Shown: piece after piece, positions 45,192 to 57,688 of the stretch
How the letters are laid out: each line of letters begins with the position of its first letter
Position numbering within the stretch: position 1 is the stretch's first letter
Origin: a virus
IMG/VR virus record: IMGVR_UViG_3300047472_000281
Span: 1 to 64,000 of that record
Strand: one strand, 5' to 3'
Length of the DNA stretch: 64,000 nucleotides
Notes under the pieces: generated by a model
Told to the model about the DNA's origin: nothing
Database searches by the model: none
What the model saw: only the letters and a program-made list of their open reading frames with translations
Program-made: the position numbers and the translations under genes

Positions 45192-45218
45192 CCATATTGC
45201 TGACGTCAAGAACATGGT

Positions 45219-45250
45219 GCGCCCCTGGCTTCGGCCGGGGGCGCTTTTTT
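45219..45250 (+). terminator. Intrinsic terminator of the late operon
   Basis: Stem GCGCCCC (45219-45225) with GGGGCGC (45238-45244), an inner GGC-ttcg-GCC tetraloop, then six T. It lies 28 bases after the o-spanin gene. The opposite strand has no U-run, so it acts for rightward transcription only. Confidence 0.92.
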
Positions 45251-45266
45251 GATTCCTGGGCGGTGG

Positions 45267-45584
45267 TTATCGCCTGACCCGGCCGGCTTGCGCCGCCGGC
45301 CGGCGGCTGCGGATATCATGCAGAAGCGAACGTCGGTGGCGAGCGGCGGCCGAACTTGCGAGGAATCGGCGCAACCAAGCATGCCCATTGCGCGTGATCG
45401 TGCAGGTACCCGTCCATTTGATGTCGGCCGTGGTGAAGTCCGCCTCGTCCTTGAGCGGATCCACATAGGCGTGGCGGGCTGGCCAGGTCAGGCTTGGGAA
45501 CGTCAAGTCGACGGAGACCACTTCCACCCGCTCGCCGTTCACCGTCATGAGCGACCAAGAACCCGCCTGAACGGCGCCGGTCAT
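45267..45584 (-). CDS. Hypothetical protein, last gene of the leftward accessory operon
   Basis: 105 residues, ATGA overlap with the upstream gene at 45581. Contains VEVVSVDLTFPSLTWPARHA and a basic C-terminus. No family recognised. It faces the late operon terminator. Confidence 0.6.
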   Translation of the reverse strand: MTGAVQAGSWSLMTVNGERVEVVSVDLTFPSLTWPARHAYVDPLKDEADFTTADIKWTGTCTITRNGHAWLRRFLASSAAARHRRSLLHDIRSRRPAAQAGRVRR

Positions 45585-46141
45585 AGGTCGCCGCCGCGCG
45601 GCCGCATGGCGAGGCGGGTCACGTTGGGGTCGTCGACTACCTTTAAGGCTTCACGCAGATAGGGCGTGTCGGCGGCGCGCCACCGGCCGGCCGCTTCGAA
45701 CTCGTCCTGCAAGGCCATGTTCTTCTTGGCCCAGTCGATCGCTATCTCGGTCTTGCCGACCGAGGCGGGCTTGTGGATGACGACGATCTCGCCATCAGCC
45801 ATCCAGCGGTCCAGACCCCAGAGGCCAGTTCCGCCGGGCGTGCCCTCGAACCGCCAGCCACGGCCCTCGCCGAGGGGCGTCCTTCGCTCCATCCAGTGCT
45901 CGCCGAGTCCCCTGACACGATCGGGGTAGAGGCATTCCTTGGCGTCCAGGATCTTCATCCCAAGGCAGGTTCGCGCTCCGTCAGCGTCCCGCCCGAGCGC
46001 GGCGGGGTAATCCACGCCGATTTCGTTGACCTCTGCGCCGGTCAGCCAGACATAGTACGGGCGCTCCTGACCGCCCTCATCGGCCGCGGCGAGCAGTCGG
46101 CGGGTGTCCAATTCGGCCAGAAGCTGCTTCAGAATGCTCAT
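45581..46141 (-). CDS. Hypothetical protein
   Basis: 186 residues, overlapping both neighbours. A tryptophan-rich middle (GLGEHWMERRTPLGEGRGWR) and HKPASVGKTEIAIDWAKKNM, which is not a true P-loop because the first glycine is absent. Function unknown. Confidence 0.65.
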   Translation of the reverse strand: MSILKQLLAELDTRRLLAAADEGGQERPYYVWLTGAEVNEIGVDYPAALGRDADGARTCLGMKILDAKECLYPDRVRGLGEHWMERRTPLGEGRGWRFEGTPGGTGLWGLDRWMADGEIVVIHKPASVGKTEIAIDWAKKNMALQDEFEAAGRWRAADTPYLREALKVVDDPNVTRLAMRPRGGDL

Positions 46142-46419
46142 GGCAGGCGCCCCGGAGGTCTCGGGACAGGGCGAACGCCCGTTGAGCCCTGGATGATGGC
46201 GTCGAGATCATGCTGGACGGCGGCCAGGCCACGCTGAAGGTGGTAGGCTAGGTCGCTACCGTCAGTCCCGTCGAGCTGCCGCCATGTGGTCATGAAGTTG
46301 AACTCACGGTCGGCGTTCTCGATGTGGATCGCGATACCCTCAGGAAGGACGATGAGGGTGGTTGGGAATCGCGCCTTATCAGCCATCTCGGCCGCCGCTC
46401 GTAGCTGCAGGGTCCACAT
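46138..46419 (-). CDS. Hypothetical protein
   Basis: 93 residues, coupled by overlap with its neighbours. Sequence WTLQLRAAAEMADKARFPTT, then a strand pattern and a helical middle, with a proline-rich end. No recognised domain. Confidence 0.6.
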   Translation of the reverse strand: MWTLQLRAAAEMADKARFPTTLIVLPEGIAIHIENADREFNFMTTWRQLDGTDGSDLAYHLQRGLAAVQHDLDAIIQGSTGVRPVPRPPGRLP

Positions 46420-46820
46420 CAGATCTCACCTCCAACAAAGGTCTCGTACAAGGCTAGCCGGGTGCGCTGGAGTTCCAGGGTTTGGTAGCCCTTCGCCGCG
46501 TCATCGTAGCTCTGGTTCAGGTCGATGATGGGCATTGGAAAGCTGGACGCGCGAGCTTCGGCCAGATCAATAGGATCTCCCTCGCCCACGCCGACGATGG
46601 GCGGCGACAGGCGGGGATCGTATCCCAAGGCCTTGACCCAGCGGGCGCGCTCGCGATCCATCTGGCGCAGCGCTCGTATGGCCGGCGAGCCATAGATCCG
46701 CTCGAACACCTCGCGCGGGATGTGGTGCAGACGTCCGGTATGGCGGCTGATGTAGAAGTTCGCCGACGGCCGCCGCCAATACTTGCTCTTCACCCGGTGG
46801 TTGGCGGTGCGGAGACGCAT
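46419..46820 (-). CDS. Hypothetical protein
   Basis: 133 residues; start overlaps the stop of the gene upstream by one base. Basic N-terminus (RLRTANHRVKSKYWRRPSAN) then YISRHTGRLHHIPREVFERI. Could bind nucleic acid, but no family is seen. Confidence 0.6.
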   Translation of the reverse strand: MRLRTANHRVKSKYWRRPSANFYISRHTGRLHHIPREVFERIYGSPAIRALRQMDRERARWVKALGYDPRLSPPIVGVGEGDPIDLAEARASSFPMPIIDLNQSYDDAAKGYQTLELQRTRLALYETFVGGEI

Positions 46821-47053
46821 CAGTCCGGCTCCCCGATGCCCAGCAGCCCGCGAAGGCTCGCCTGGATTTCATGCCGGCCCAAGCGCCGGGCCATGCTCAT
46901 GGCCTTCGCAGCGGTGTTGGCCGAGGCCTCGTCGTCGAAGGTGATGCCGCCGAAAGGGCCAAGCTTGTCGCTAAGCCAGATCGTCCAGCGCTTGCCGTTG
47001 GGCTTGACGAAGAAGTCGTCGGCGATGGTGTCGTAGTGGACGAGCGCGACCAT
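46820..47053 (-). CDS. Hypothetical protein
   Basis: 77 residues, one-base overlap with the upstream gene. Compact soluble protein (KPNGKRWTIWLSDKLGPFGG). Function unknown. Confidence 0.6.
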   Translation of the reverse strand: MVALVHYDTIADDFFVKPNGKRWTIWLSDKLGPFGGITFDDEASANTAAKAMSMARRLGRHEIQASLRGLLGIGEPD

Positions 47054-47295
47054 CAGGCTTTCTCCGCTCGGACTTCGGCGATCATCGCCGAGAAAGCATC
47101 GGCCAGAATGCCAGGGCGGGGCTGGCCGGCCATCGCCAACGCAAACTCGCGGAGCCCGGCCCTGACCATCGCTATATCGCGATCCTGCAGCGTGAATAGG
47201 AAGTCATCGACCAACTCGGCAGGAGTCTTGGCGCGCGCCATACCCTCGGCCGCAACTTCGAGCAGTCTTTCGCGCATTGTCTGTGGGTGAGCCAT
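47053..47295 (-). CDS. Hypothetical helical protein
   Basis: 80 residues from ATG 47295, whose start overlaps the stop of the gene at 47295-47816. Fully helical (RERLLEVAAEGMARAKTPAE, FALAMAGQPRPGILADAF). No recognised family. Confidence 0.6.
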   Translation of the reverse strand: MAHPQTMRERLLEVAAEGMARAKTPAELVDDFLFTLQDRDIAMVRAGLREFALAMAGQPRPGILADAFSAMIAEVRAEKA

Positions 47296-47816
47296 CAGAC
47301 GGGCTCCCGGTCCATGACGACCGTGACGTCGTGGTTGTCGGTCCACAGCCAGCAGGCTGCGCGGGTGATGGCGGCGTCGACGACGGCGAAGAAGAAGCCC
47401 ACGCCAGGATCGTTCAGCACGTCCAGCTGCTCGGGCTCGAGGCGCAGGCCATGATCGGGGAGGCGGAGCAGCTTCAGGATATGCCGCTCGCCCAGCGGCC
47501 GGCGGATCGGCGCCGACAGGCCGTCAGGATCCGCGCGGCGGGCCGCCAGCGCCTCTTCCTGCAGTTCCTTGGCCAGAGCCTCGACGGCCGTCTCGATCGA
47601 CCACAGGGCGTCGCGCAGGGGATTGGGATAGCCGATCTTGGCTGAGCGCTCCCAGGACACCACGATGCTGTTGGTGGTCTCGCCGCGGCCGGCGTTGATC
47701 GCGTTGGCCAGGGCGGAGATGTGCCGGCGCTCCAGATTGATCGCGGTGCGCATCCCCCGGCTCTCTGGGCCGGTCAGGGGGCGGTCTCGGTGGCCGAACA
47801 GGGCGCGGGAGGTCAT
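47295..47816 (-). CDS. Hypothetical protein behind a start-associated stem-loop
   Basis: 173 residues, ATG 47816 with AAGGAACC upstream and a copy of the conserved stem-loop at 47838-47853. Helical first half (RTAINLERRHISALANAINA) and a C-terminal GVGFFFAVVDAAITRAACWL region. No family recognised. Confidence 0.65.
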   Translation of the reverse strand: MTSRALFGHRDRPLTGPESRGMRTAINLERRHISALANAINAGRGETTNSIVVSWERSAKIGYPNPLRDALWSIETAVEALAKELQEEALAARRADPDGLSAPIRRPLGERHILKLLRLPDHGLRLEPEQLDVLNDPGVGFFFAVVDAAITRAACWLWTDNHDVTVVMDREPV

Positions 47817-47837
47817 GGGCGGTGGTTCCTTGGTGAG

Positions 47838-47853
47838 CCGTGCTCCTGCGCGG
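47838..47853 (-). repeat. Start-associated stem-loop, copy 1
   Basis: Upstream of the gene starting at 47816. On the leftward RNA: CCGCGC, four-base loop AGGA, GCACGG, with one C-A mismatch. The AAGGAA ribosome-binding site follows. The most diverged copy of the family. Confidence 0.65.
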
Positions 47854-47866
47854 CGTGGTTGCGATA

Positions 47867-48217
47867 TCAGAGGCGGCGCTTGGCCAGGGCGAGTCGTTCC
47901 ATCCGGACAGCTTCACACCACCATGCGGCGCCGAGGATCCGTGTCGAGGGCGGCTCTTCAAGCCAGGCCTCCACCTCCGCCTGGGCGCCGGCGGTGTCGC
48001 CGTAATCCCCCTGGATCTGGAGGAAGATCAGATAGGCGTCCTCGACCAGCACATAGGCCAGGGCCTTAGACCCGTTCGACGCGGCGATGCACGCCTGCAG
48101 AACGTCCAGATAGATCAGCGCGGCCTGCTGGGTGTTCAGGCCCATGGTCAGGGCGAGCTTGGCGATGCGCTCGTCGGTCGCATCGTTCTCGGGCGTGGCC
48201 TGCGAGGGGTTCGGCAT
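47867..48217 (-). CDS. Hypothetical protein
   Basis: 116 residues from ATG 48217 with AAGGAG upstream; a longer upstream frame is unlikely since it would cross a structured repeat. Sequence DERIAKLALTMGLNTQQAAL, then a helical body and GAAWWCEAVRMERLALAKRR. Unknown function. Confidence 0.65.
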   Translation of the reverse strand: MPNPSQATPENDATDERIAKLALTMGLNTQQAALIYLDVLQACIAASNGSKALAYVLVEDAYLIFLQIQGDYGDTAGAQAEVEAWLEEPPSTRILGAAWWCEAVRMERLALAKRRL

Positions 48218-48275
48218 AACGGCTCCTTGGCCTAGCAGAGTAGCACCGAGGGCGGATTGGGCCATAGGCTTCGCA

Positions 48276-48337
48276 GCTGACCCTTTCGCGTTTTGCGTCC
48301 ACCCTTCACGCTGAAAGGGTGGCCTGAAAGGGTCAGC
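48276..48337. repeat. Nested inverted repeat built from four GAAAGGGT-type units
   Basis: Outer arms GCTGACCCTTTC (48276-48287) and GAAAGGGTCAGC (48326-48337) are perfect complements of 12 bases. Inside are CCACCCTT (48299-48306) and AAGGGTGG (48315-48322). ACCCTTTC/GAAAGGGT units thus occur in both orientations within 62 bases between two leftward genes. Could be a protein-binding array or an RNA attenuator. Confidence 0.7.
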
Positions 48338-48479
48338 CATGGGCGAGCACTCCAAAGCCTTGCCGGGCAAGGGCTAGTAGGGGGCGAAGGGTGGCCAATC
48401 CGGCGCCCGAATAGAGCGGTTTTCCAGCCGCTTTCGCGGCCGCTCGGGCGTCACGGATAAGGGTCGATTTGGAAGACAT
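48333..48479 (-). CDS. Small protein, paralogue of the 1672-1863 product
   Basis: 48 residues from ATG 48479, AAGGAG nine bases upstream. ARAAAKAAGKPLYSGAGLAT then LLALARQGFGVLAHG, with the AAK-AG-LYS-GLA core shared with the 63-residue product at 1672-1863. Its stop lies within the nested inverted repeat. Function unknown. Confidence 0.65.
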   Translation of the reverse strand: MSSKSTLIRDARAAAKAAGKPLYSGAGLATLRPLLALARQGFGVLAHG

Positions 48480-48507
48480 GGGCGTCGTCTCCTTAGGCGA
48501 GGGCCGA

Positions 48508-49425
48508 TTAGGCCGGAGGGTTGTTGGGAGGGGCGGTGTCGCTGAAGGGCAGGGGCGTCCAGCCGGCGAACCAGTCGTCGTCGAGACCACCAAGGCCGAA
48601 GGGCCCAGCGAGCCCCCAGCCCTCGTCAAGACCTTCATCAACACCGTCGGTGTCGATGCCTGGGTGACGGATCACGACCCAGAGGCCGCCAAAGCGATCG
48701 AGATCGGCGCGCCCGGGGATTTCCGGCTTGAAGCGGGCCAGGACCGGCGTCCTGTTCTTCAGGGCCTTCGACATCGGGCGCAGAGCGTCGAGCAGTGGAC
48801 CTTCCCATGTTGCCCGGCCATGCTCGCGCATCTTCTCGTCGATTGCCAGGCGGCAGGACCGCAGAGCGTTGGGCTCGGAGTCCTGCAGGTCGACGTCCTG
48901 GTCGCCCAACATCAGGCGATTGACGTTGTGGTTCATGACCAAGCGCCAGCGATAGGTCGTGCCGTACTTGGCATTGAGCCGGATATTGGCCTCGTCCAAG
49001 TAGTCGAGGCGGGCCTTGTCGGCTTCCAGCGCCGCGCACCTAGCCTCGGCGGCGACGGCGCGTGCGACCTGCTCCTCGCAGCGCAGGGCCATGTCCTCGG
49101 CGTTTTGGCGCCACGTCATGGGCCAGAGAGGCCCACAGCCATTGGGGCAGGGCTCGGTCTTGTTGTCGCCAGCCGTGATCGCGCCCGACTGGGCGTGGAG
49201 CACGTTGCGGACCAGGACGAACGAGCACTTGGCGCACCGCATCATGCCGGGGACGACATCGGCTCTGGCCGCCGAGCTGTCGCCCGACAAGGCTTGGGCC
49301 GCAACCACTAGCAGCGAGGCCGTTTCCTGAGCGTAGGGCGTGGCGCCGATCACTTCGCCCCGCATGAAGCGGTCCGCTAGCTCCAAGAGGCGCGGCGTGG
49401 GGTCAACTGTTTGGGGGGAAGACAT
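48508..49425 (-). CDS. Hypothetical zinc-ribbon phage protein
   Basis: 305 residues, ATG 49425 behind AAGGAACC and a stem-loop copy. N-terminal region LLELADRFMRGEVIGATPYA, then CAKC (about residue 64) and CPNGC (about 93) as a zinc ribbon, a helical segment (MALRCEEQVARAVAAEARCA) and a long C-terminus. The ALRCEEQVA helix is common in phage accessory proteins of the Eaa/Ead style. Function unknown. Confidence 0.7.
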   Translation of the reverse strand: MSSPQTVDPTPRLLELADRFMRGEVIGATPYAQETASLLVVAAQALSGDSSAARADVVPGMMRCAKCSFVLVRNVLHAQSGAITAGDNKTEPCPNGCGPLWPMTWRQNAEDMALRCEEQVARAVAAEARCAALEADKARLDYLDEANIRLNAKYGTTYRWRLVMNHNVNRLMLGDQDVDLQDSEPNALRSCRLAIDEKMREHGRATWEGPLLDALRPMSKALKNRTPVLARFKPEIPGRADLDRFGGLWVVIRHPGIDTDGVDEGLDEGWGLAGPFGLGGLDDDWFAGWTPLPFSDTAPPNNPPA

Positions 49426-49445
49426 GGCGGTGGTTCCTTCGTAAG

Positions 49446-49462
49446 CCGCGCCTCATGCGCGG
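49446..49462 (-). repeat. Start-associated stem-loop, copy 2
   Basis: Perfect 6-bp stem CCGCGC/GCGCGG with a five-base loop, upstream of the gene starting at 49425. GCTGATT lies just outside on the plus strand, as in most copies. Confidence 0.85.
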
Positions 49463-49510
49463 GGCTGATTGGGCTGTAGGCTTCAGGTCGAGGCTGATTG
49501 GGCTGCAGGG

Positions 49511-49936
49511 TCAGGGCCAGCCGCTCTTCATCATACGCCGGCCGGGCGGAAACGGCGGCTTGACCAGGGTCAGATCGATTTGCACCGTGTTGGCGGTTTC
49601 ACGCCTGACGGCCGATCCCAGCGGCGCACCGGTCAGATTGTTGACGATGATCGCGGGCTGAGCGACGACTGCGCCCGACTCGATATCCTCGGTGCTCCAG
49701 CCGTTCGCAGCGGCCAGGGACCAGAGTGCAGCCACCCGCCGCGCGGCTTGGACGCGCTCATCTTGCGTCAGCAGGTAGGAATAGGCAGTGGTGGCCAAAC
49801 CGAGAAAGCGGCCACCGACCTTGATCCGAACGCTGCGCCACCGGTCCCATTTCGCCGGCTTGGCCGCTAGCGGCTCGTTGTCGCCGCCGCGCTTTCCGAT
49901 GGTGTTCGCCTCTTCGATCGCAAAGGGTGTGACCAT
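49511..49936 (-). CDS. Hypothetical protein
   Basis: 141 residues, ATG 49936 behind AAGGAACC and a stem-loop copy. Sequence VTPFAIEEANTIGKRGGDNE then RWRSVRIKVGGRFLGLATTA, beta-rich by eye. No recognised family. Confidence 0.65.
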   Translation of the reverse strand: MVTPFAIEEANTIGKRGGDNEPLAAKPAKWDRWRSVRIKVGGRFLGLATTAYSYLLTQDERVQAARRVAALWSLAAANGWSTEDIESGAVVAQPAIIVNNLTGAPLGSAVRRETANTVQIDLTLVKPPFPPGRRMMKSGWP

Positions 49937-49957
49937 GGCGGTTGGTTCCTTGTGTTG

Positions 49958-49974
49958 CCGCGCCACATGCGCGG
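49958..49974 (-). repeat. Start-associated stem-loop, copy 3
   Basis: Perfect 6-bp stem CCGCGC/GCGCGG with an ATGTG loop on the leftward RNA, upstream of the gene starting at 49936. Confidence 0.85.
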
Positions 49975-49995
49975 GGGCTGATTGGGTCGCAGGGT

Positions 49996-51177
49996 TCAGG
50001 CGAGAGCGGGCTGGCGCGGCAGGACGTCGCCGTCGAACCACTCTAGGTGGGCCATGGCGGCGTCCTTCTTGGACTTCGCTGCCAGCAAGTCTTCAAACCG
50101 CTGGATCACGGCCTCGGGCGTTGGGAACGTGTTCTCCAGACCATGATGAGCCAGGATGATCTCGCGGGCCGCAACGACCTGCACCGCCTCGTCATAGGTT
50201 GGGGCGCGCAGAGGCCAGCCCTTCACGTACCGCAAGCCCTTGGGCAGACTGGCCTCGAGGGCTTGGCGTTCGGCGCCGCGCACCTTGCCGACGGCCAGGC
50301 CTGCCGCGAGGGCCGGTGAGATCAGGTGCGGCGACACATCGCCTAGCCAGCGCGTGGGCTGAAAGCTGAAGGTCGAGTTTGCCTCGACGCCGACCAGGTG
50401 ACGATAGACCGCGTGGTTGTCCTCGCTGCGCGACGAGGCTTCCTGATCACGGACCTTTTGCAGCACGCAGTAGGAGCAGCCCAGGCGAGACGTCCCGTGA
50501 ACGCTGTAGGCAACGTGAAGGGGCAGGGCGTGGCGTTCATGATAGGCGAACACTTCGCCCAGCAGAACCTCGGCCGCTGGATGCCAGGACATCAGCGTCG
50601 TTCCGTCGCGCTTGGACCAACGAGGCTCGGGCTTCGACACCGGCGCCAAGCTGCGCGCGGGGCTCTCTTCGCGCCGGATCCCGATGACAGAGATGATCAC
50701 GCGGCCGGGGAAAGCCTTCTGGAGGGCGGGCGAAATCACCTGCTGCTTGAGCTCGGCCGTGCAGAAGCGGAGACTAGCGCTCGACCAGGGTCCAATCAGG
50801 TTGAACACCTCCAAGGCGGCGTACCGGCGTTTACCCTCGGCGAAGCGGGCCTCCCAGCGCGAAATCATGTCGTGGCGGCCATGGCGAACCACCATCAGCG
50901 GAACGCCCAGCTGCTCGGCGATGCGCTCGCACATCGGCAGGCTTTCCTTCCACTCGATCCTGCCCAGGTCGGCGTGGATTGCCACGCGGTCCTCTTTCGG
51001 GTGGCCCAGCATGTCCAGGAGCCGGTTCGCGGAATGCGCGGCGACCGAGGAGTCCTTGCCACCGCTCAGGCTGAAGGCAACGACGGCACCGGCTCGGATG
51101 GCCGCCAGGACCTCGGTGTCGACCGCGATCCCGACCTCGCGGAACATCTCGATCTCTTCGGCGGTGGTCATCGTCAT
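49996..51177 (-). CDS. PAPS reductase-like / adenine nucleotide alpha-hydrolase protein
   Basis: 393 residues from ATG 51177 (AAGGAAC nine bases upstream, stem-loop copy before it). PP-loop SGGKDS at residues 38-43, then HADLGRIEWKES, CTAELKQQV, GIRREESPARS and GCSYCVLQ, the usual order in the PAPS reductase/DndC-like family. These enzymes activate substrates by adenylylation. In phages they are linked to sulfur metabolism or to nucleic-acid modification; which applies here cannot be told. No dnd-type partner genes are seen nearby. Confidence 0.85.
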   Translation of the reverse strand: MTMTTAEEIEMFREVGIAVDTEVLAAIRAGAVVAFSLSGGKDSSVAAHSANRLLDMLGHPKEDRVAIHADLGRIEWKESLPMCERIAEQLGVPLMVVRHGRHDMISRWEARFAEGKRRYAALEVFNLIGPWSSASLRFCTAELKQQVISPALQKAFPGRVIISVIGIRREESPARSLAPVSKPEPRWSKRDGTTLMSWHPAAEVLLGEVFAYHERHALPLHVAYSVHGTSRLGCSYCVLQKVRDQEASSRSEDNHAVYRHLVGVEANSTFSFQPTRWLGDVSPHLISPALAAGLAVGKVRGAERQALEASLPKGLRYVKGWPLRAPTYDEAVQVVAAREIILAHHGLENTFPTPEAVIQRFEDLLAAKSKKDAAMAHLEWFDGDVLPRQPALA

Positions 51178-51195
51178 AGGGTCGTTCCTTGCTGG

Positions 51196-51214
51196 CCCGC
51201 GCCACATGCGCGGG
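51196..51214 (-). repeat. Start-associated stem-loop, copy 4
   Basis: Perfect 7-bp stem CCCGCGC/GCGCGGG around ATGTG, upstream of the PAPS reductase-like gene (start 51177). Confidence 0.9.
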
Positions 51215-51232
51215 CTGATTGATCTGGTGGGT

Positions 51233-51466
51233 CTACTGGCAGGCGACGTCGATGCTGGAGCGCAGCTCTTCGAAGTGGCCGGGCAGATCGTCCTGCAGGG
51301 TGGTGATCGCGTCCTGCATCTTGATTCCGCTGTCGGCGCCCTGAAGGCTCTCAGGGAGGTTTTCGAACGCGGCCTGTTCAGCGGCGAGCACCTCTTCGAC
51401 AAGGGTCTCGGCCTGATTGATCAGCTCGGCGGCTTGCTGGAGCATCTTGCGGCGGTCGTTGTTCAT
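51233..51466 (-). CDS. Small acidic coiled-coil protein
   Basis: 77 residues, ATG 51466 behind AAGGAAC and a stem-loop copy. Helical and acidic (RKMLQQAAELINQAETLVEE, GHFEELRSSIDVAC). Unknown function. Confidence 0.65.
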   Translation of the reverse strand: MNNDRRKMLQQAAELINQAETLVEEVLAAEQAAFENLPESLQGADSGIKMQDAITTLQDDLPGHFEELRSSIDVACQ

Positions 51467-51484
51467 GGCTTCGTTCCTTGGTGA

Positions 51485-51501
51485 CCCACGCCATGCGCGG
51501 G
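51485..51501 (-). repeat. Start-associated stem-loop, copy 5
   Basis: On the leftward RNA: CCCGCGC, three-base loop, GCGTGGG, with one G-U pair in the stem. Upstream of the gene starting at 51466. Confidence 0.85.
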
Positions 51502-51519
51502 CTGATTGAGCTTTAGGGC

Positions 51520-52317
51520 TTAGGCGGCCAGGTCGCGGCGCACCCCGATGAAGACTGCACCACGCGGCGCGCCATCCCTGGTCTTGCCGCAAAGCCGCAC
51601 CGTGCCCAGTCGGCCGGGCAGATTGCCCCGTTGGGTCCAGAGCGACGCGGCCTGAGCGCGCGGCATGGCGACCGGCGCCGAGAACAGGCGCCCGGCATAC
51701 TCAAGGGTGACAGACCCGACAGCGTCTGGATCGTCCAGCCGAGCGCGAACAGACCTGATAACGCCCTCTAGCTCGCCGGTCGGCTTCAGCTTGACCGCCT
51801 CGCAACGCGTGGAAGAGGCGTTGCCCTCGCGATAACCCCACGTCCCGGCCTTCAGAACCAAGCCCTCGCCATTGCGGGCGACCACCTCGGCGAACGCCTC
51901 GTTGACGCTCTCAAGGGAGCGATGACAGAGGGCGGGCGACACCTGGACGACATCTTGAGCGCCAAGGGACGCCACAGCCTGCCGCACCTTCGCCAGACGA
52001 TCCACAAAGGCCATGGAAGAGCCGGCCAGGTCGAAAACCATGAAGCGCCAGCCAGAGGGGAGAGCACCCGAACCCATGAAGGCGGATTGCGCGGCCTCAA
52101 AGCCGCCGGGGGCGGTCAGTTCGCCATGGTGACCCCACAGAGCGCGCTGGGAGAGGAAGGCGCGGGCCTCCGGATTGGGAAGGGGAAGGCCCTCTTTCGT
52201 ATGCAGGCCCATAGAGGGGCAGACCAGGCCGCCGACTCCATCGTGCTTTTCCTGCGACCAGCAAGGGAAGGGGAGGCGGGAGAGATCGGCCGTAACCGGG
52301 TGCATCGGCTTGAGCAT
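51520..52317 (-). CDS. Small ATP-dependent DNA ligase
   Basis: 265 residues, ATG 52317 behind AAGGAAC and a stem-loop copy. Nucleotidyltransferase motifs in order: motif I Lys24 in EKHDG, motif III HGELT (64-68), IIIa FMVFDLAG (92-99), IV EGLVLK (151-156) and V KLKP (176-179). The remaining about 85 residues suit an OB fold. It should seal nicks using ATP, for phage replication or repair. It is shorter than T7 ligase, like the minimal bacterial and viral ligases. Confidence 0.85.
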   Translation of the reverse strand: MLKPMHPVTADLSRLPFPCWSQEKHDGVGGLVCPSMGLHTKEGLPLPNPEARAFLSQRALWGHHGELTAPGGFEAAQSAFMGSGALPSGWRFMVFDLAGSSMAFVDRLAKVRQAVASLGAQDVVQVSPALCHRSLESVNEAFAEVVARNGEGLVLKAGTWGYREGNASSTRCEAVKLKPTGELEGVIRSVRARLDDPDAVGSVTLEYAGRLFSAPVAMPRAQAASLWTQRGNLPGRLGTVRLCGKTRDGAPRGAVFIGVRRDLAA

Positions 52318-52336
52318 GGCGGGCGTTCCTTGGTGA

Positions 52337-52355
52337 CCCGCGCCACATGCGCGGG
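52337..52355 (-). repeat. Start-associated stem-loop, copy 6
   Basis: Perfect 7-bp stem CCCGCGC/GCGCGGG around ATGTG, upstream of the ligase gene (start 52317). Confidence 0.9.
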
Positions 52356-52388
52356 AGAGGCTGATTAAGGGGGCGGGTTAGGCGGTGG

Positions 52389-52724
52389 TCAATCTTCCTC
52401 GTGTTCTTCTTGGGCGGTGGTTTCGTCATCGCCCTCCGGCTGCTCTATCCCGGCGTCTTCGTGCGACACGAACACCCACGCCATGACATAACCGCCATCA
52501 CTGCCCTCGGACACGATCGCGTCGCCGTCGACTTCGACTTCGCCTTCGCTGAGAAAGCCGGTGTTGCCGGCGCCATCCGCATAGGCGGACAGGTGCGGTT
52601 CGGTCTGGCGCTGATGCTCAGCGAAGACGGGAACGGCGCGCCCGAAATTCAGGCCGGCTTCAATCAGCGCCAGTAATTGGTCTTCTAAGCTCGGGGCGGT
52701 GGTGCTCTGGACGGTCGCGGACAT
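52389..52724 (-). CDS. Hypothetical acidic protein
   Basis: 111 residues, ATG 52724 behind AAGGAAC and a stem-loop copy. Central NFGRAVPVFAEHQRQTEPHL then a strongly acidic C-terminus (EQPEGDDETTAQEEHEED). Acidic tails of this kind occur in DNA-mimic proteins, but nothing else supports that. Function unknown. Confidence 0.65.
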   Translation of the reverse strand: MSATVQSTTAPSLEDQLLALIEAGLNFGRAVPVFAEHQRQTEPHLSAYADGAGNTGFLSEGEVEVDGDAIVSEGSDGGYVMAWVFVSHEDAGIEQPEGDDETTAQEEHEED

Positions 52725-52742
52725 GGTTGCGTTCCTTGAAGG

Positions 52743-52761
52743 CCCACGCCACATGCGCGGG
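52743..52761 (-). repeat. Start-associated stem-loop, copy 7
   Basis: On the leftward RNA: CCCGCGC, loop ATGTG, GCGTGGG, with one G-U pair. Upstream of the gene starting at 52724. Confidence 0.85.
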
Positions 52762-52776
52762 GCTGGCCATACAGGC

Positions 52777-53175
52777 CTAGAGCTGTTCCGAAGGGAAATT
52801 CGGCGTTTCGTTCGAAGCGAGGGCGGCTTGCAACTGCTCCACGAGAGCCTTGTTGTCCTCGGTGTTTTCGTAGGTCCCGTCGGCGATGCCGGATTCAAGG
52901 TCTTCCAGGTAGGACTGCGCAGCGTCGCTAAGGCGGTCGAGGACCGAACGCCGGACCAGAACGAACGGGTCTGACGGTATGGCGGGCGGATCGTACTGCG
53001 ACACCGACCCGCCGGTAACCTTCATGATGTTCCGCCCACGCTTGCGAAGGCAAATCTCGTTTCCGAGTTCACCAGCATGCTCGAAGTTGTAGGCCTCGAC
53101 GTCGCCGCTCCAAGCGCCGGGGTTGCCGGCGTTCGTGCAGTAGAGAACCTCAACATGATATCGGCCTTTGGGCAT
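52777..53175 (-). CDS. Hypothetical protein
   Basis: 132 residues, ATG 53175 behind AAGGAAC and a stem-loop copy. N-terminal half PKGRYHVEVLYCTNAG then SGDVEAYNFEHAGELGNEIC suggests a small alpha/beta fold. The acidic C-terminal helix contains ENTEDNKALVEQLQAALASN. Unknown function. Confidence 0.65.
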   Translation of the reverse strand: MPKGRYHVEVLYCTNAGNPGAWSGDVEAYNFEHAGELGNEICLRKRGRNIMKVTGGSVSQYDPPAIPSDPFVLVRRSVLDRLSDAAQSYLEDLESGIADGTYENTEDNKALVEQLQAALASNETPNFPSEQL

Positions 53176-53193
53176 GGTCTCGTTCCTTGCTGG

Positions 53194-53212
53194 CCCGCGC
53201 CACATGCGAGGG
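53194..53212 (-). repeat. Start-associated stem-loop, copy 8
   Basis: Seven-bp stem with one mismatch (GCGAGGG facing CCCGCGC on the plus strand), loop of five. Upstream of the gene starting at 53175; GCTGATT follows twice. Confidence 0.8.
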
Positions 53213-53255
53213 CTGATTGGCTCATATGGTCGCCGGGCTGATTGGCCTGGCGGGT

Positions 53256-54449
53256 CTAGGCGGCCAGACGCAGCGCCACGGCTCGCGGGGCGTCCAGCGT
53301 GACGCAGGTCCCGTCACTCGCGGTGAGGCGGAAGGCGAAGCCCCCGGCCAGGCGCCGGGCGGTGTAGCGGACTAGGCCGCCCTCCGGCGCCGTGGCGTGG
53401 CGCTCGACCAGCAACAGCAAGGCGCGGGCCTTGTGCTTCGCCTCGGTCGATGCGCGTTCGAAGGCCGCGACGATTCCCGCCAGATCGAAGACGACGGCCG
53501 CTCCGTCGAGGTCATGCATGTTGGTCGGCGCCGTGGCTCCAGGAACGGCCGTCGCTTTGGCGACGATGACGGGCGGAAGTTCGAACGCTGCGACAGCGGC
53601 CGCACGGCGCGACGCCAGAAAATCGCATGCGCCGTCCGCGACGCGCAGATGGCCTGAGCCGTCCATTTCATAGGCGATGCCGGGGCTATGGGCTCGGCCT
53701 CGGAAGATGCGCCCGCCTTGGGCGGAAATCTCCGCCTCGCGCCAAAACAGGCGCGGCGGGACGATTCGGGCTTCGAGATTGGCCGCCTCATTGGCGTCGC
53801 CGGCGCCGTAGCGGCCGCCAGGGGGCGGCGTGAACGTCTCGCCGGTGTTCTCGTCATAGATCGCCAACAGAGCGGCCATCGGACGCACACGGGCGAGGTG
53901 TTGCCAATCGGGCGAGTCGGCCATCACGCCACACGACGTGCGAACCTGCATGGCGCGCAGCTCCACCCCGGCCATGGCCTCCAGCTGTCGGGCATACTCA
54001 TGGCGAGCGCGGAGGCGGCGCAGCGTGTCGCCAGCCGCTAGGGCGGCCGCCCAGCGGGTCTGGGGCTTCCCGCCGTGATAGACGACGCCACAGACGCGGG
54101 TCGCCGTGCCATCGGCCCAGACGCACCAGAACGCGCCGGTGGCGGCCTTGTTGCGGGGAGGGCGGGAAAACAGCGCGGCTAAGTCATCCTCGACCCTCTC
54201 AGCCCGCGCCGTGCGCTTCTTGGCGGCTACGGGAGCGGCTTGCTCGCTGGGAGCGCCAAGGGCGGCCGAAAGAGGCGCGGAGGGGCGCAAGGTCGCACCG
54301 ATGATGATTTGCCGCTGCAGGGCGCGGGCCAAGGCGTGCGCGGCGGCTTCATAGGCCGAGGCGGCGCCGGAAGTGCGCGCCAGGTCATAGAGCGCCAGGG
54401 CGGCTTGGGGGGAGGTGGCGCCCAGAGGGGCGGCTAGGGTGGCGATCAT
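53256..54449 (-). CDS. Hypothetical large accessory protein
   Basis: 397 residues, ATG 54449 behind ACGGAAC and a stem-loop copy. Alanine-rich N-terminal helices, then GAFWCVWADGTATRVCGVVY and a repeated pattern of aliphatic strands. No catalytic motif or family is recognised. It is the longest gene of the accessory operon. Confidence 0.65.
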   Translation of the reverse strand: MIATLAAPLGATSPQAALALYDLARTSGAASAYEAAAHALARALQRQIIIGATLRPSAPLSAALGAPSEQAAPVAAKKRTARAERVEDDLAALFSRPPRNKAATGAFWCVWADGTATRVCGVVYHGGKPQTRWAAALAAGDTLRRLRARHEYARQLEAMAGVELRAMQVRTSCGVMADSPDWQHLARVRPMAALLAIYDENTGETFTPPPGGRYGAGDANEAANLEARIVPPRLFWREAEISAQGGRIFRGRAHSPGIAYEMDGSGHLRVADGACDFLASRRAAAVAAFELPPVIVAKATAVPGATAPTNMHDLDGAAVVFDLAGIVAAFERASTEAKHKARALLLLVERHATAPEGGLVRYTARRLAGGFAFRLTASDGTCVTLDAPRAVALRLAA

Positions 54450-54468
54450 TGGTCAGTTCCGTTTCAGG

Positions 54469-54485
54469 CCACGCCGCATGCGTGG
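54469..54485 (-). repeat. Start-associated stem-loop, copy 9
   Basis: Stem CCACGC/GCGTGG, loop of five. The fourth pair is A-U here where other copies have G-C or G-U: a compensatory change. Upstream of the gene starting at 54449. Confidence 0.85.
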
Positions 54486-54537
54486 CGGTTAGAACGTCGA
54501 GCCGTTCGGCGAGGCCCTGCAGCGCTAGGCGGAAAGG

Positions 54538-54927
54538 CTAGTTCAGGGCGGGCGGGTTCATGGGCCAAGTGGACCAATCTCCCGCGTCGCCGCTTTTGGC
54601 GTTGTCTCGGTCCTGCCAGGCGCGGGCGGCGTCCTCAGTAGGGAAGGGGCCAATCACAGGCGTCAGCAGTTCGGGTCTGAAGACAACCCAACCAGCGGCG
54701 GCTTCTTGGAACACAAACACATATCCCTTGATGGTCTCGCCGCCGACCAGCTCGCCCGGGCCGCAATAGCGCTCAGCGAGGGCTTTGGCCGCGGCCATGT
54801 GATTAGCGCTCTGCGAAAGGTTGTGATCGTAGGGCACAACGACGCGGCTATCCTGCTGGCGCGCCACGATGCGCGCGCTCTTGGTATTCGTCGCACCTAA
54901 AAAGCTGGTCTCAATCGCTGATCGCAT
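54538..54927 (-). CDS. Hypothetical protein, first gene of the accessory operon
   Basis: 129 residues, ATG 54927 behind AAGGAAC and a stem-loop copy. Contains YVFVFQEAAAGWVVFRPELL and DAARAWQDRDNAKSGDAGDW. No family recognised. The operon promoter should be in the 400 bases to its right. Confidence 0.65.
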   Translation of the reverse strand: MRSAIETSFLGATNTKSARIVARQQDSRVVVPYDHNLSQSANHMAAAKALAERYCGPGELVGGETIKGYVFVFQEAAAGWVVFRPELLTPVIGPFPTEDAARAWQDRDNAKSGDAGDWSTWPMNPPALN

Positions 54928-54945
54928 TTGGTCGTTCCTTGCTGA

Positions 54946-54964
54946 ACCACGCCGCATGCGTGGT
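54946..54964 (-). repeat. Start-associated stem-loop, copy 10
   Basis: Seven-bp stem ACCACGC/GCGTGGT, A-U in place of G-C at two pairs, both sides changed together. Upstream of the gene starting at 54927. Confidence 0.85.
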
Positions 54965-55331
54965 CGGGATGTTGGCGCCATCCTGACTTCTCCGAGTTGG
55001 TGAGGTCAGAACCTCGAGCCTTTCATGATGCGCCTCGACCAAATGCGAGACGTCCAGGACGGCGCCGACAGCCGAAACATAGGCGCGGGCGATGCTGCGT
55101 CAACAAGAAAATGCAGTGCGTAGCAAGTATTCAACAGCTCAGGCTCCGGGCGCTGACGCGATAGCGCCCGGTAATGCAGTAACCGTCTGGTCACGCGGCG
55201 GGTCCTTCCTGCCGGGAATGAATATGCGGGGAAAAGACCCGCCGGTCTAAACTGAAAAATATTTAGAAACGATGGTGTAGTGTAGGGTGGATATTGTCGC
55301 GGAAAAATCCGGCGGCGCGGCGTCGTCGCCC
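54965..55331. other. Non-coding region upstream of the accessory operon
   Basis: About 370 bases without a convincing gene. A 9-bp perfect hairpin (CCGGGCGCT 55146-55154, AGCGCCCGG 55163-55171) and an AT-rich patch near 55247-55275 are visible. It should contain the leftward promoter for 54927-45267, but I could not place -35 and -10 boxes with confidence. Confidence 0.5.
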
Positions 55332-55372
55332 TTGTGGAATATTCCAATGCGGCATATATTCCAGTCTGGAAT
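55332..55372 (+). promoter_or_regulatory. Promoter with two operators for the XRE gene
   Basis: TTGTGG (55332-55337), 17 bases, TATATT (55355-55360). Two inverted repeats overlap these boxes: TGGAAT-ATTCCA (55335-55346) and ATTCCA-GTC-TGGAAT (55358-55372), which share one half-site. The layout is that of an autoregulated repressor or antitoxin promoter. Confidence 0.75.
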
Positions 55373-55394
55373 TATCCAAGTTGGAGCAACGAAA

Positions 55395-55709
55395 ATGACC
55401 GACGTGAAGTATGAGGATTGGCGGCCGGCTCTGTCGCCTGAGGAGGAAGCCCAGGTCGCCGAAGGCGTAGTGGCGCTGAAGGCGCGTGTTTCCTTGCTGC
55501 GCACGCTGCGCGAGCGCATCGGTCTAACTCAGGCCGAATTGGCCGAAATCCTTGAGACCTCCCAGTCGAACGTCTCCAAGATCGAAGCAAAAGACGACCC
55601 ATACGTCTCGACGCTCAGGAAAGTCATCGAGGCGAAGGGCGGAAAGCTGAAGGTGATCGCGACCTTCCCTGAGGGCGACATCGAGATTCCACTGTTCTTG
55701 TCGGTTTAG
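55395..55709 (+). CDS. XRE-family regulator, HigA-like orphan antitoxin candidate
   Basis: 104 residues, ATG 55395 with GGAG eight bases upstream. Helix-turn-helix RIGLTQAELAEILETSQSNV then SKIEA, followed by the C-terminal strand pattern GGKLKVIATFPEGDIEI common in HigA antitoxins. No toxin gene adjoins it. It lies beside attP under its own promoter, as genes expressed in lysogeny do. It may neutralise a host toxin or regulate locally; unproven. Confidence 0.8.
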   Translation: MTDVKYEDWRPALSPEEEAQVAEGVVALKARVSLLRTLRERIGLTQAELAEILETSQSNVSKIEAKDDPYVSTLRKVIEAKGGKLKVIATFPEGDIEIPLFLSV

Positions 55710-55715
55710 CCGGCG

Positions 55716-55982
55716 CTATCGGCGCCTACGCAGCGGCCGGGTCGGCGTGCCTGGCGATGGGCCGTAGTGAAAGATGACCTTGTGCCCGCAGCCTGGCGTG
55801 GGGCAGGTCGGGCTGCGATCGGACAGGTCGAAGCCCTCGCCGTATTTGGCGATGATCGCGTCGAGATCCACCGGCCGGAAGAACTGGCACTTTGCGCACA
55901 TGACGTTGACGACGGCGGTCGACGCCTTGAGCGCGCCGACCGATTGCGCCCAGGTTGGCAGGTAGGCGGGGTTCTTTCCCAT
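55716..55982 (-). CDS. Zinc-ribbon protein beside attP
   Basis: 88 residues from ATG 55982, GGAG upstream. CAKC at about residue 29 and CPTPGC at about 60 form a zinc ribbon; the end is basic. Convergent with the XRE gene and separated from it by six bases. Function unknown. Confidence 0.65.
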   Translation of the reverse strand: MGKNPAYLPTWAQSVGALKASTAVVNVMCAKCQFFRPVDLDAIIAKYGEGFDLSDRSPTCPTPGCGHKVIFHYGPSPGTPTRPLRRRR

Positions 55983-56014
55983 GGTCAGCTCCAGCGAACG
56001 GAGCCGGAACATTA

Positions 56015-56264
56015 TTCGGGACTATTCCGGGACTTCTAGTCCCGAACCACCCCTTTTTTCGCCATTTGTTCCCACTTTCGACCACGTTTGAAGTGGCCGT
56101 TTTTGGGAGAAAAGTGTAGTGAAAACAAAGAGAAAGGTGGTGCCGGATGAGGGGATTGAACCCCCGACCTTCGGTTTACAAAACCGCGCTGTGAAGTGGC
56201 GCAAAGCCAGGCTCAATAAGGTGTTGAAGGCTGCGGTCTCGGAGTGGTTCGGGAGTATTCCGGG
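56015..56264. other. attP region with integrase arm-type repeats
   Basis: The tRNA-derived core (56138-56191) is flanked by matching 17-base repeats TTCGGGACTATTCCGGG (56015-56031) and TTCGGGAGTATTCCGGG (56248-56264), 16/17 identical. An inverted copy, TCCCGAACCAC at 56040-56050, is the exact complement of GTGGTTCGGGA at 56245-56255. Core plus arm sites on both sides next to int is the attP plan of lambda-type integrases. The rest of the 327-base gap shows nothing else. Confidence 0.8.
56138..56191 (-). other. 3' part of a tRNA gene, probably tRNA-Thr(UGU), as att core
   Basis: On the leftward strand the sequence has the 3' anticodon arm with TGT in the loop, a variable loop, a T-arm (GGGGG-TTCAATC-CCCTC), the 3' acceptor strand ATCCGGC and ACCA. 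The D-arm and 5' acceptor strand are missing. It is therefore not a working tRNA but the segment that would restore a host tRNA after integration. Confidence 0.85.
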
Positions 56265-56309
56265 GAAGTCTGCAAGCGCGGCGGGCCCAAAAAGGACCTC
56301 GGTGGGGCC

Positions 56310-57443
56310 TTAGCCCGTCGCCTGGCCGTCGTCGACCACCTGGGCGGCCGCTACCGGAGCCGCAACGACTTCGTCTTCCAGGGCCGAGCGGAGATCGCTG
56401 GAGAGCACGTGCGCGTAGCGCTGCGAACTCTGGATCGTGGCGTGGCCCAGGAGCGCCTGGACGGCCTTCAGGTTCTTGGTGCGCTTCAGAACGGTCGAGC
56501 CGGCGTGGTGGCGCGCGCCGTGGATGCGTCGGGCGCCGGTGAGCCCCGCGGCGTCCGCCGCCTTGCTGACGCGGTATTCGATCTGGTTGTACGTGTAGCA
56601 GACCAGCTTCTTGCCCTGCTGGTGGAACCACAGGTGTTCGAGGCCGGCCTCGACGGCGCAGGAGTGGCGGGCGGCCAGGGCGCGGCCGTGGTCCAGGCGA
56701 AGGGGAATGACCAGCAGGACGTCGCGCTTGCGGCCCTTCTGCAGGGTCAGCGTCGGATCCTCGGGGTCGAGGTTCAGCGCCGAGGGCGGGAACAGCAGCT
56801 CGCCCAGGCGCAGGCCATAGGTCAGCAGCATGTCGACCGCGAGCGCCATGTCTTCCTCGGCCGCGGCGATCCATCCTGTCCGCTCGGCCGGACTGTAGAG
56901 CCGGCTCAGGCCGCGCGGCTCCCGCAGACGCAGGACGCGCCAGTCGATATCGGGCAGGCCATGCGGGGTCTCGGCCGGCGTCCAGTGCGTTCTGGCGCGG
57001 CGGAGGATCGGCCGGAGGGTTTCGATGACGTCCCGGTTCACGGTCGAGTTTGACGGCTGATAGACCAGCGCGTCGTCGGCATGGCCGCGCTTCAGCGTCT
57101 GTTTCTTCCGGTCTTCGATCGCGGTGGCGACGATGTCCTGGCCGATCGAGCCCAGTGTTTTGTTCTTGCCGATCAGCGCCACCAGGTTGTGAACCCTGCG
57201 CTCGACATCGCGATTGTCGCCGCGATGGATGCCGACCTCTTCCCACCAACGGCCGGCGGCTATGTCCAAGGTCATCAGCGAGACCGCGCCCAACTGGCCG
57301 GTGGCGGCCGCCATGCGCTTCTTGGTCTCTACGGCCTCGGCTGCACGACGCGTAGCCTGACCGGTCGATCCATGAAACCGCGTCCCGCCGATGACGAAGT
57401 CGTACTGCCAGAAGCGGCTTTTGGTCGGTTTGTAGACGGACAC
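56310..57443 (-). CDS. int: Tyrosine-type integrase
   Basis: 377 residues, ATG 57443. Catalytic set: Arg212 (TYGLRLGEL), a lysine in QKGRKRD (236/239), His308-x-x-Arg311 (HGARH), His334 (GHATI) and Tyr343 (QRYAHV). The N-terminus (KSRFWQYDFVIGGTRFHGST) is the arm-binding domain. It recombines attP with a tRNA gene. Transcribed from the leftward early operon. Confidence 0.95.
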   Translation of the reverse strand: MSVYKPTKSRFWQYDFVIGGTRFHGSTGQATRRAAEAVETKKRMAAATGQLGAVSLMTLDIAAGRWWEEVGIHRGDNRDVERRVHNLVALIGKNKTLGSIGQDIVATAIEDRKKQTLKRGHADDALVYQPSNSTVNRDVIETLRPILRRARTHWTPAETPHGLPDIDWRVLRLREPRGLSRLYSPAERTGWIAAAEEDMALAVDMLLTYGLRLGELLFPPSALNLDPEDPTLTLQKGRKRDVLLVIPLRLDHGRALAARHSCAVEAGLEHLWFHQQGKKLVCYTYNQIEYRVSKAADAAGLTGARRIHGARHHAGSTVLKRTKNLKAVQALLGHATIQSSQRYAHVLSSDLRSALEDEVVAAPVAAAQVVDDGQATG

Positions 57444-57688
57444 TGCTCCGGCTCCTTGGGCTTCACGACTATCGGCGGCGGGTTGATCAGATAGGCCCGC
57501 AGCACCGCCTCGCTATAGGTCGGCCTGCTGCCACGCGGGCACGCCTGGATGTCGCCAGACGCAGTCATCGCTCGCAACACCTTCACGTCAAGACCGATCA
57601 GCTTGGCGGCCGCCTTGGCAGTGATCGTCGCGCGGTCCGCGAACTCGACTTGGAATCGCGCTTCGGTGGCCGGACCGAGGAAGGTCAT
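57329..57688 (-). CDS. Excisionase-like winged-helix protein
   Basis: 119 residues, overlapping the integrase start by 115 bases in another frame. Residues about 22-65 (KAAAKLIGLDVKVLRAMTAS, YSEAVLRAYLIN) resemble an AlpA/MerR-type winged helix, as in Xis proteins. A proline/serine-rich tail lies in the overlap. Placement next to int supports a directionality-factor role, which is inferred. Confidence 0.65.
   Translation of the reverse strand: MTFLGPATEARFQVEFADRATITAKAAAKLIGLDVKVLRAMTASGDIQACPRGSRPTYSEAVLRAYLINPPPIVVKPKEPEQCPSTNRPKAASGSTTSSSAGRGFMDRPVRLRVVQPRP

What the first reader, a model, noticed from the sequence alone, without database searches (positions are those of the whole stretch)
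47838..54964. Family of ten start-associated RNA stem-loops in one phage operon
Ten genes of the leftward accessory operon (starts 47816, 49425, 49936, 51177, 51466, 52317, 52724, 53175, 54449, 54927) share a block upstream: AATCAGC (most copies), a 6-7 bp stem with a short loop (usually ATGNG), then AAGGAAC and the start codon. Four stems are all G-C, two have G-U and two A-U at the same pair, the path expected under selection for an RNA helix on the leftward transcript; two have one mismatch. Mycobacteriophage start-associated sequences are the nearest described analogue. It may be a translation switch, processing site or binding site for a phage RNA-binding protein.
Basis: partly seen in the sequence, partly recalled or inferred. 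Interest (0 to 1): 0.88.

Follow-up and report, generated by a model that had tools for sequence, protein, structure and literature searches.

The report
Start-associated RNA hairpins in phage operon
In one operon of a Caulobacter-type temperate phage, ten genes (and their counterparts in related phages) each carry a small RNA hairpin at a near-fixed distance before the ribosome-binding site; the hairpin's pairing has been preserved by evolution, which points to a shared RNA-level control of these genes whose exact role is untested.

Summary
Ten copies precede the ten named start codons on the minus strand; none occur elsewhere in the 70-kb record (0.25 expected by chance per strand). I found 19 more in two related phages (one a prophage of Caulobacter sp. 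Root343) and four diverged ones in two distant relatives. A covariance model separates the 29 close copies (30-63 bits) from background (19 bits or less).

Pairing is preserved: over 18 distinct stems from five phages, 4 of 7 base pairs show compensatory changes and 18 cells are changed on both sides (shuffles 6.9 +/- 1.9; 0/500). Orthologous genes show it directly. Geometry is rigid: loop to GGA is 14 nt in 30 of 33 copies and 15 in three, even where loop and spacer sequences differ.

Best explanation: an RNA stem-loop plus Shine-Dalgarno module controlling translation initiation of a fast-changing early operon, recognised by the 30S subunit or an unidentified factor. RNA-level selection is well supported; the translational role is inferred. 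It belongs to the known but unexplained kind of phage 'start-associated' repeats (mycobacteriophage SAS; Microbacterium cluster EG inverted repeats), but in sequence it is neither. New variant of a known kind.

The parts
54927..54964 (-). Element 1: hairpin 54946-54964 (ACCACGC-ATGCG-GCGTGGT), GGAAC 54934-54938, ATG at 54927; gene 54538-54927 (first gene of operon)
   Evidence: (51.0 bits)
54449..54486 (-). Element 2: hairpin 54468-54486 (GCCACGC-ATGCG-GCGTGGC), GGAAC 54456-54460, ATG at 54449; gene A 53256-54449
   Evidence: (39.4 bits)
53175..53212 (-). Element 3: hairpin 53194-53212 (CCCTCGC-ATGTG-GCGCGGG, mismatch at pair 4), GGAAC 53182-53186, ATG at 53175
   Evidence: (55.1 bits)
52724..52761 (-). 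Element 4: hairpin 52743-52761 (CCCGCGC-ATGTG-GCGTGGG, G-U at pair 4), GGAAC 52731-52735, ATG at 52724; gene B
   Evidence: (47.3 bits)
52317..52355 (-). Element 5: hairpin 52337-52355 (CCCGCGC-ATGTG-GCGCGGG), GGAAC 52325-52329, ATG at 52317; gene C, ATP-dependent DNA-ligase family
   Evidence: (52.9 bits); gene:
51466..51501 (-). Element 6: hairpin 51485-51501 (CCCGCGC-ATG-GCGTGGG, 3-nt loop, G-U), GGAAC 51473-51477, ATG at 51466
   Evidence: (45.8 bits)
51177..51214 (-). Element 7: hairpin 51196-51214 (CCCGCGC-ATGTG-GCGCGGG), GGAAC 51184-51188, ATG at 51177; gene D, PAPS-reductase family
   Evidence: (62.4 bits); gene:
49936..49975 (-). Element 8: hairpin 49957-49975 (6 bp of CCCGCGC-ATGTG-GCGCGGC), GGAAC 49945-49949, ATG at 49936
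   Evidence: (50.9 bits)
49425..49463 (-). Element 9: hairpin 49445-49463 (6 bp of CCCGCGC-ATGAG-GCGCGGC), GGAAC 49433-49437, ATG at 49425
   Evidence: (54.1 bits)
47816..47854 (-). Element 10: hairpin 47837-47854 (GCCGCGC-AGGA-GCACGGC, tetraloop subtype), GGAAC 47825-47829, ATG at 47816; gene E 47295-47816
   Evidence: (39.9 bits)
55076..55103 (-). Candidate operon promoter TTGACG-16-TATGTT upstream of the first hairpin, conserved in the Root343 prophage; a consensus match only
49463..49511 (-). Example of the accompanying 20-nt motif ACCCT-N7-AATC[ACT]GCC between stop codon and hairpin (two tandem copies here, beginning at 49511 and 49482, the second as AGCCT)

Best explanation
Each gene of the leftward early/accessory operon carries its own standard leader: a 7-bp RNA stem-loop whose 3' side ends 7 nt (rarely 8) before the GGA of the Shine-Dalgarno sequence, so the stem ends 16-21 nt upstream of the AUG, at the upstream edge of an initiating 30S subunit. 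Shown: the pairing is selected, the distance to GGA is nearly constant, the copies are confined to this operon, every close copy is start-associated, and orthologous genes keep it while neighbouring genes are replaced. Inferred: it works on the mRNA at translation initiation, either as a docking or boundary element for the 30S subunit or as the site of a trans-acting (probably phage-encoded) RNA-binding factor that sets translation of all these genes together. In either case it lets newly acquired genes be plugged in with the same expression signal.
For: 29 close copies in three phages (10, 11 and 8), all directly before an ATG on the coding strand, and four diverged copies before genes A and E in two more. 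Compensatory pairing: 27 aligned copies, 94.2% of cells paired, 14 cells changed on both sides against 4.5 +/- 1.7 shuffled, 0/500; 18 distinct stems from five phages, 4 of 7 pairs compensated, covariation 0.356 against 0.101 +/- 0.030, slid versions 0.10 or less. Within orthologs: gene A pair 4 is A-U in the window, C-G in Root343, L106 and L123; gene C G-C against A-U; gene E pair 4 G-C against C-G and pair 6 C-G against G-C. Geometry: loop to GGA 14 nt in 26/29 and 15 in 3, and 14 nt in the four diverged copies although loop (AATTGC, CATTGC, CATCGC) and SD (GGAG) differ. GGA to ATG spacing is that of a normal SD. Phage-specific: the Root343 genome has only the 8 prophage copies; no other strong match in 390 Caulobacteraceae genomes. 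Gene turnover: only 5 of 11 operon genes have homologs in phage G1, against 20 of 22 structural genes.
Against: No experiment or transcript data. Folding does not show that the hairpin by itself frees the SD: mean SD accessibility 0.49 with the hairpin and 0.50 with its bases forced unpaired, although both exceed other genes of these phages (0.36; p = 0.0006). In genomic context several copies are not predicted to fold dominantly (probability near 0 for five of 29). Pair 4 is unpaired in 5 of 29 close copies. No RNA-binding partner protein was identified. One ortholog (ligase gene in Root343) lacks the element. Rows are related sequences, so shuffle counts are not probabilities.
Confidence: 0.55

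Rival explanations
1. mRNA processing and stability element: the polycistronic transcript is cut in the single-stranded ACCCT-N7-AATC[AC]GCC stretch just upstream, and the stem-loop then protects the new 5' end of each gene's mRNA.
For: A 5' stem close to the 5' end is a known stabiliser in general (own knowledge); the ACCCT-N7-AATCMGCC motif follows stop codons and abuts most hairpins; the motif persists in the two distant relatives.
Against: The motif is missing before genes A and E and the first gene, which keep the hairpin. Stem protection alone would not require a near-exact 14-nt distance to GGA. No nuclease candidate was found; the proteins scanned by family models showed no CRISPR-type (Cas6) or other RNase family apart from an exonuclease domain.
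Confidence: 0.2
2. Recombination joints: short conserved gene-boundary sequences, kept alike by exchange, that let gene cassettes be swapped; regulation is secondary.
For: Operon gene content turns over quickly with the element at nearly every boundary; neighbouring copies can be nearly identical over about 55 nt (G1 58862 and 58529); 20-nt motif in tandem copies.
Against: Recombination needs identity, not pairing: compensatory changes and fixed distance to GGA are unexplained. Orthologous copies resemble each other at least as much as copies within one phage (means 0.63 and 0.59) and gene E keeps its own loop type in three phages.
Confidence: 0.12
3. DNA operator or stoperator: a dyad bound as DNA by the phage repressor or another regulator to stop transcription in the prophage.
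For: The phage is temperate (integrase and HTH regulator next to the operon); L5-type stoperators lie in short intergenic gaps in one orientation (own knowledge; asymmetric stoperators are described in PMC9283540).
Against: No AATCNGCC copy lies in the divergent regulator-operon interval and no further copy of the hairpin was scored there; that interval instead holds other AT-rich palindromes. Base identity changes freely while pairing is kept, loop and flanks are always in mRNA orientation, and distance to the SD is fixed. Wobble counts (5 G-U on the mRNA strand, 3 A-C) do not decide it.
Confidence: 0.08
4. The loop AUG is the real start, or starts a short leader peptide overlapping the SD.
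For: Loop AUG in 25 of 29 copies; 13 are in frame with the gene without a stop, giving MWRGPARNET-like extensions.
Against: 11 are out of frame, one has a stop, four copies have no AUG; no SD precedes the loop AUG; the four diverged copies have no AUG in the loop. The 5' arm covaries although it would lie outside the peptide.
Confidence: 0.03

Closest known systems
18-bp start-associated inverted repeats of Microbacterium cluster EG phages (Hyperion, Squash, OneinaGillian; PMC7302621)
   Same: 8-10 inverted repeats in short intergenic gaps of a leftward non-structural arm, 14-22 bp upstream of start codons, conserved although the surrounding genes differ; I re-read Hyperion and find the SD between repeat and start, and G-C to A-T changes on both arms in two copies.
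   Different: Sequence GATCAACC-NN-GGTTGATC is nearly invariant with a 2-bp spacer; no loop conservation or RNA covariation was reported; lytic actinobacterial hosts.
Start-associated sequences (SAS/ESAS), cluster K mycobacteriophages (PMC3203893, PMC11373665, PMC12699233)
   Same: Multiple near-identical copies at translation starts of non-structural genes; SD-bearing core plus upstream inverted repeat; function unproven.
   Different: SAS is a 13-bp asymmetric GGGATAGGAGCCC; ESAS repeats are 17 bp and overlap predicted SigA promoters. Here the core is a 7-bp hairpin with 3-6 nt loop and no promoter.
26-bp start repeat of Citrobacter phage Mordin (PMC4611695)
   Same: SD-containing repeat before eight genes of unknown function.
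   Different: Unrelated sequence; no hairpin described.
PeSL mobile regulatory cassettes of T4-type phages (cited in PMC4503421; originals not held)
   Same: Repeated intergenic stem-loops in a region of gene turnover.
   Different: PeSLs combine an early promoter with a stem-loop terminator; here neither promoter nor T-tract.

Membership tests
SAS/ESAS (cluster K) | 13-bp asymmetric GGGATAGGAGCCC at the SD | tested here: not met
   Core is GGAAC or GGAG preceded by a variable spacer
SAS/ESAS (cluster K) | Located at starts of a subset of non-structural genes | tested here: met
   29/29 before ATG, all in the leftward operon
SAS/ESAS (cluster K) | 17-bp imperfect inverted repeats with variable spacer containing SigA-like promoter | tested here: not met
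   7-bp stem, 3-6 nt loop; promoter-like hexamers upstream of only 3 of 29 copies
Microbacterium cluster EG inverted repeat | Inverted repeat 14-22 bp upstream of start codons in short intergenic gaps | tested here: met
   Stem ends 16-21 nt before ATG; 19 nt in the four diverged copies
Microbacterium cluster EG inverted repeat | Consensus GATCAACCNNGGTTGATC | tested here: not met
   Stem sequences share no such consensus
PeSL (T4-type) | Early promoter followed by stem-loop terminator | tested here: not met
   One promoter-like site in 12.5 kb, upstream of the operon; none of the hairpins is listed as terminator-like
L5-type stoperator | Same site also at the repressor-controlled early promoter | tested here: not met
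   No AATCNGCC copy and no hairpin match in 54978-55394
Rfam RNA families | Match at gathering score | tested here: not met
   No match in window
Translation regulator site of phage RNA-binding protein | Cognate protein binds the hairpin | not testable with these tools
   No candidate identified; structure predictions of genes A and E were of low confidence

The most novel reading that the evidence does not exclude
A previously undescribed class of phage cis-acting RNA: a stem-loop locked in register with the Shine-Dalgarno sequence and read by a phage-encoded factor whose loop preference has co-evolved by lineage (ATGNG or AGG[AC] against [AC]ATYGC), forming an operon-wide translational regulon into which new genes are plugged.
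Probability: 0.25. Interest if true: 0.78.

Novelty: new variant of a known kind. Interest (0 to 1): 0.62.

Why it matters
Start-associated repeats have been reported in several unrelated phages since 2011 and their role is stated to be unknown or unproven in the papers read here. This family gives direct comparative evidence that such a unit can be an RNA structure (compensatory pairing, fixed distance to the SD) and names a tractable system, a prophage in a sequenced Caulobacter isolate (Root343), in which the question can be tested. It also suggests how phages could give newly acquired genes a uniform expression signal.

Tried and rejected
(1) Thermodynamic insulation of the SD by the hairpin: blocking the stem bases does not change predicted SD accessibility. 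(2) Host repeat: no copies in the Root343 chromosome outside the prophage; weak single hits in other Caulobacteraceae, where inspected, looked like chance or terminator-like hairpins. (3) L011 viral hit: inside a coding sequence without the 5' arm, chance. (4) 42 further viral contigs with the core pattern and the other genome hits: best were isolated matches, no multi-copy arrays. (5) PAPS-reductase relative in IMGVR_UViG_2811995277_000002 has no element, so the element does not follow that gene family. (6) A second hairpin GGC-CAATCY-GCC around the distal AATC motif: present in some copies only, not kept. (7) No close isolate phage in INPHARED by DNA or by gene E. (8) Structure predictions of genes A and E: mean pLDDT 50 and 43, not used. 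(9) First MAFFT alignment misplaced two short-loop rows, so pair counts were made on A2 without them and on arms-only A5.
Full report
Check of the observation. The window (66% G+C) is bases 1-64000 of a 70,333-base viral record. On the minus strand, ten genes between 47816 and 54927 are each preceded by a short stem-loop, a 7-nt spacer ending in CAA or similar, GGAAC and an ATG. No other copy exists in the record on either strand, and the combination hairpin + GGAAC + ATG is expected 0.25 times per strand.

Relatives. A pattern scan of viral and genome collections found two further carriers: IMGVR_UViG_3300028584_000650 (G1, 11 copies) and a prophage of Caulobacter sp. Root343 (IMGVR_UViG_2643221642_000002, G2; 8 copies, two of them just outside the IMG/VR boundary). 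Terminase large subunit is 92% and 77% identical to the window's, so these are one phage group. The phage is temperate, with a tail tape measure gene, an integrase and a divergent HTH regulator beside the operon. A profile of gene E then led to a fourth relative in another Caulobacteraceae genome (G374 contig 14, L106), and the accompanying AATC motif led to a fifth (IMGVR_UViG_3300048577_000441, L123). In these two, orthologs of gene A (about 36% identical) and gene E (about 44%) again have a 7-bp stem-loop before the SD, with different loops (AATTGC, CATCGC, CATTGC) and with GGAG instead of GGAAC. The covariance model of the close copies barely sees them (17.4 bits), so they are independent evidence for the stem rather than for the sequence. 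L106 and L123 resemble each other closely and should be counted as roughly one lineage.

Is it an RNA helix? In the 27 rows that align cleanly, 94.2% of cells are paired (shuffled 86.0 +/- 1.4), with 14 double changes (4.5 +/- 1.7) and covariation 0.224 (0.080 +/- 0.020), each reached by 0 of 500 shuffles; sliding the partner by 1-3 columns destroys it. Collapsing to the 18 distinct stems of all five phages gives 92.9% paired, 18 double changes (6.9 +/- 1.9) and compensated changes at four of seven pairs; the two innermost pairs never vary. These shuffle counts do not correct for relatedness, so the ortholog comparisons matter: gene A changes A-U to C-G, gene C G-C to A-U, gene E G-C to C-G at pair 4 and C-G to G-C at pair 6. 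Some copies break pair 4 (5 of 29), and gene F keeps the break in two phages, so pair 4 is tolerant. G-U on the mRNA strand (5) against A-C (3) does not by itself separate RNA from DNA.

Geometry. The distance from loop to GGA is 14 nt in 26 of 29 close copies and 15 in three, although the spacer sequence varies, and it is again 14 in the four diverged copies (counted on the sequences). GGA to ATG varies in the normal SD range. The stem therefore ends 16-21 nt upstream of the AUG, at the edge of the region an initiating ribosome covers (own knowledge). This tie to the SD rather than to the stop codon or the AUG is the strongest pointer to translation initiation. Folding offers no support for a simple unmasking effect, so recognition by the ribosome or by a factor is preferred; this step is inference.

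Transcription context. The only promoter-like site found in 45000-57500 is TTGACG-16-TATGTT at 55103-55076 on the operon's strand, 112 nt upstream of the first hairpin and conserved in the Root343 prophage; one such site is about what shuffles give, so its conservation is the better argument. Three of 29 copies have promoter-like hexamers just upstream. None of the hairpins is listed as terminator-like.

Evolution. Only 5 of 11 operon genes have homologs in G1 or G2, against 20 and 18 of 22 structural genes, and gene order differs around a kept A-B-C core. The element goes with most genes, including ones without homologs. Copies of orthologous genes are about as similar (0.63; one pair is misregistered and lowers it) as copies within one phage (0.59), and gene E keeps its own loop type in three phages, so both descent with the gene and spread within a genome are likely.

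Accompanying motif. AATCAGC is the tail of a 20-nt motif, ACCCT-N7-AATC[ACT]GCC, that starts at or just after the upstream stop codon, often in two tandem copies; it also stands before genes without the hairpin and recurs in L106 and L123. It is not needed for the hairpin (absent before genes A, E and the first gene).

Comparison with the known. Rfam has no match. Published phage start-associated repeats are the right kind: SAS/ESAS of cluster K (PMC3203893; a later paper states the role is ill-defined and places predicted promoters in ESAS, PMC11373665), a similar pair in Microbacterium cluster EF and, closest in position, the inverted repeats of cluster EG (PMC7302621), plus Mordin (PMC4611695). 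None shares the sequence, and none was reported with compensatory pairing in the passages read. Reading Hyperion directly I find two copies in which the outer pair changed on both arms, so the EG repeat may be a comparable case. I file the present element as a new variant of this kind, not as a member of SAS or EG.

Verdict. Observation confirmed and strengthened; RNA-level selection likely (about 0.85, my estimate); translation-initiation role 0.55; trans-acting factor unproven.

Noticed in passing
window 4549-5181 (+), 2545-3150 (+), 63141-63386 (-): The phage encodes relatives of Caulobacter cell-cycle/nucleoid regulators: GcrA (PF07750, E 2e-34), GapR DNA-binding domain (PF10073, E 1e-11) and DUF1153 (PF06627, E 3e-14; the SciP family, from own knowledge). 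Homologs of all three genes are in G1 and G2.
   Followed up: partly
window 48250-53260 (-), L106 2900-6360, L123: 20-nt motif ACCCT-N7-AATC[ACT]GCC placed at or just after stop codons, often in tandem, same strand as the genes, in all five related phages (L123 two to three copies); function unknown.
   Followed up: partly
window 54985-55050 and L015 610-760: Leader between the promoter-like site and the first start hairpin: in Root343 a longer hairpin GTCCTGG...CCAGGAC with inner GCTCGC-ATGCG-GCGAGC; the window has TCTGAC...GTCAGGA at the same place (sequence).
   Followed up: no
window 55290-55400: AT-rich palindromes (ATTCCAGACTGGAAT, TGGAATATTCC) in front of the divergent HTH gene 55395-55709, a candidate operator.
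   Followed up: no
window 9664-10635 and 14825-16705 (+): Two ORFs match terminase large subunit models; the first covers only part of the profile.
   Followed up: no
Caulobacter sp. Root343 NZ_LMDF01000007.1 about 304151-304650: The IMG/VR prophage call ends at the start of gene A; two more start hairpins and a further operon gene lie just outside its boundary.
   Followed up: yes
window 49996-51177 (-): PAPS-reductase-family gene in the operon with weak similarity to BrxP (BREX) and SspD defence proteins.
   Followed up: no
L060 (Microbacterium phage Hyperion), record positions near 57000 and 60733: Two start-associated inverted repeats have the outer pair changed from G-C to A-T on both arms, hinting that pairing may be kept there too.
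   Followed up: partly
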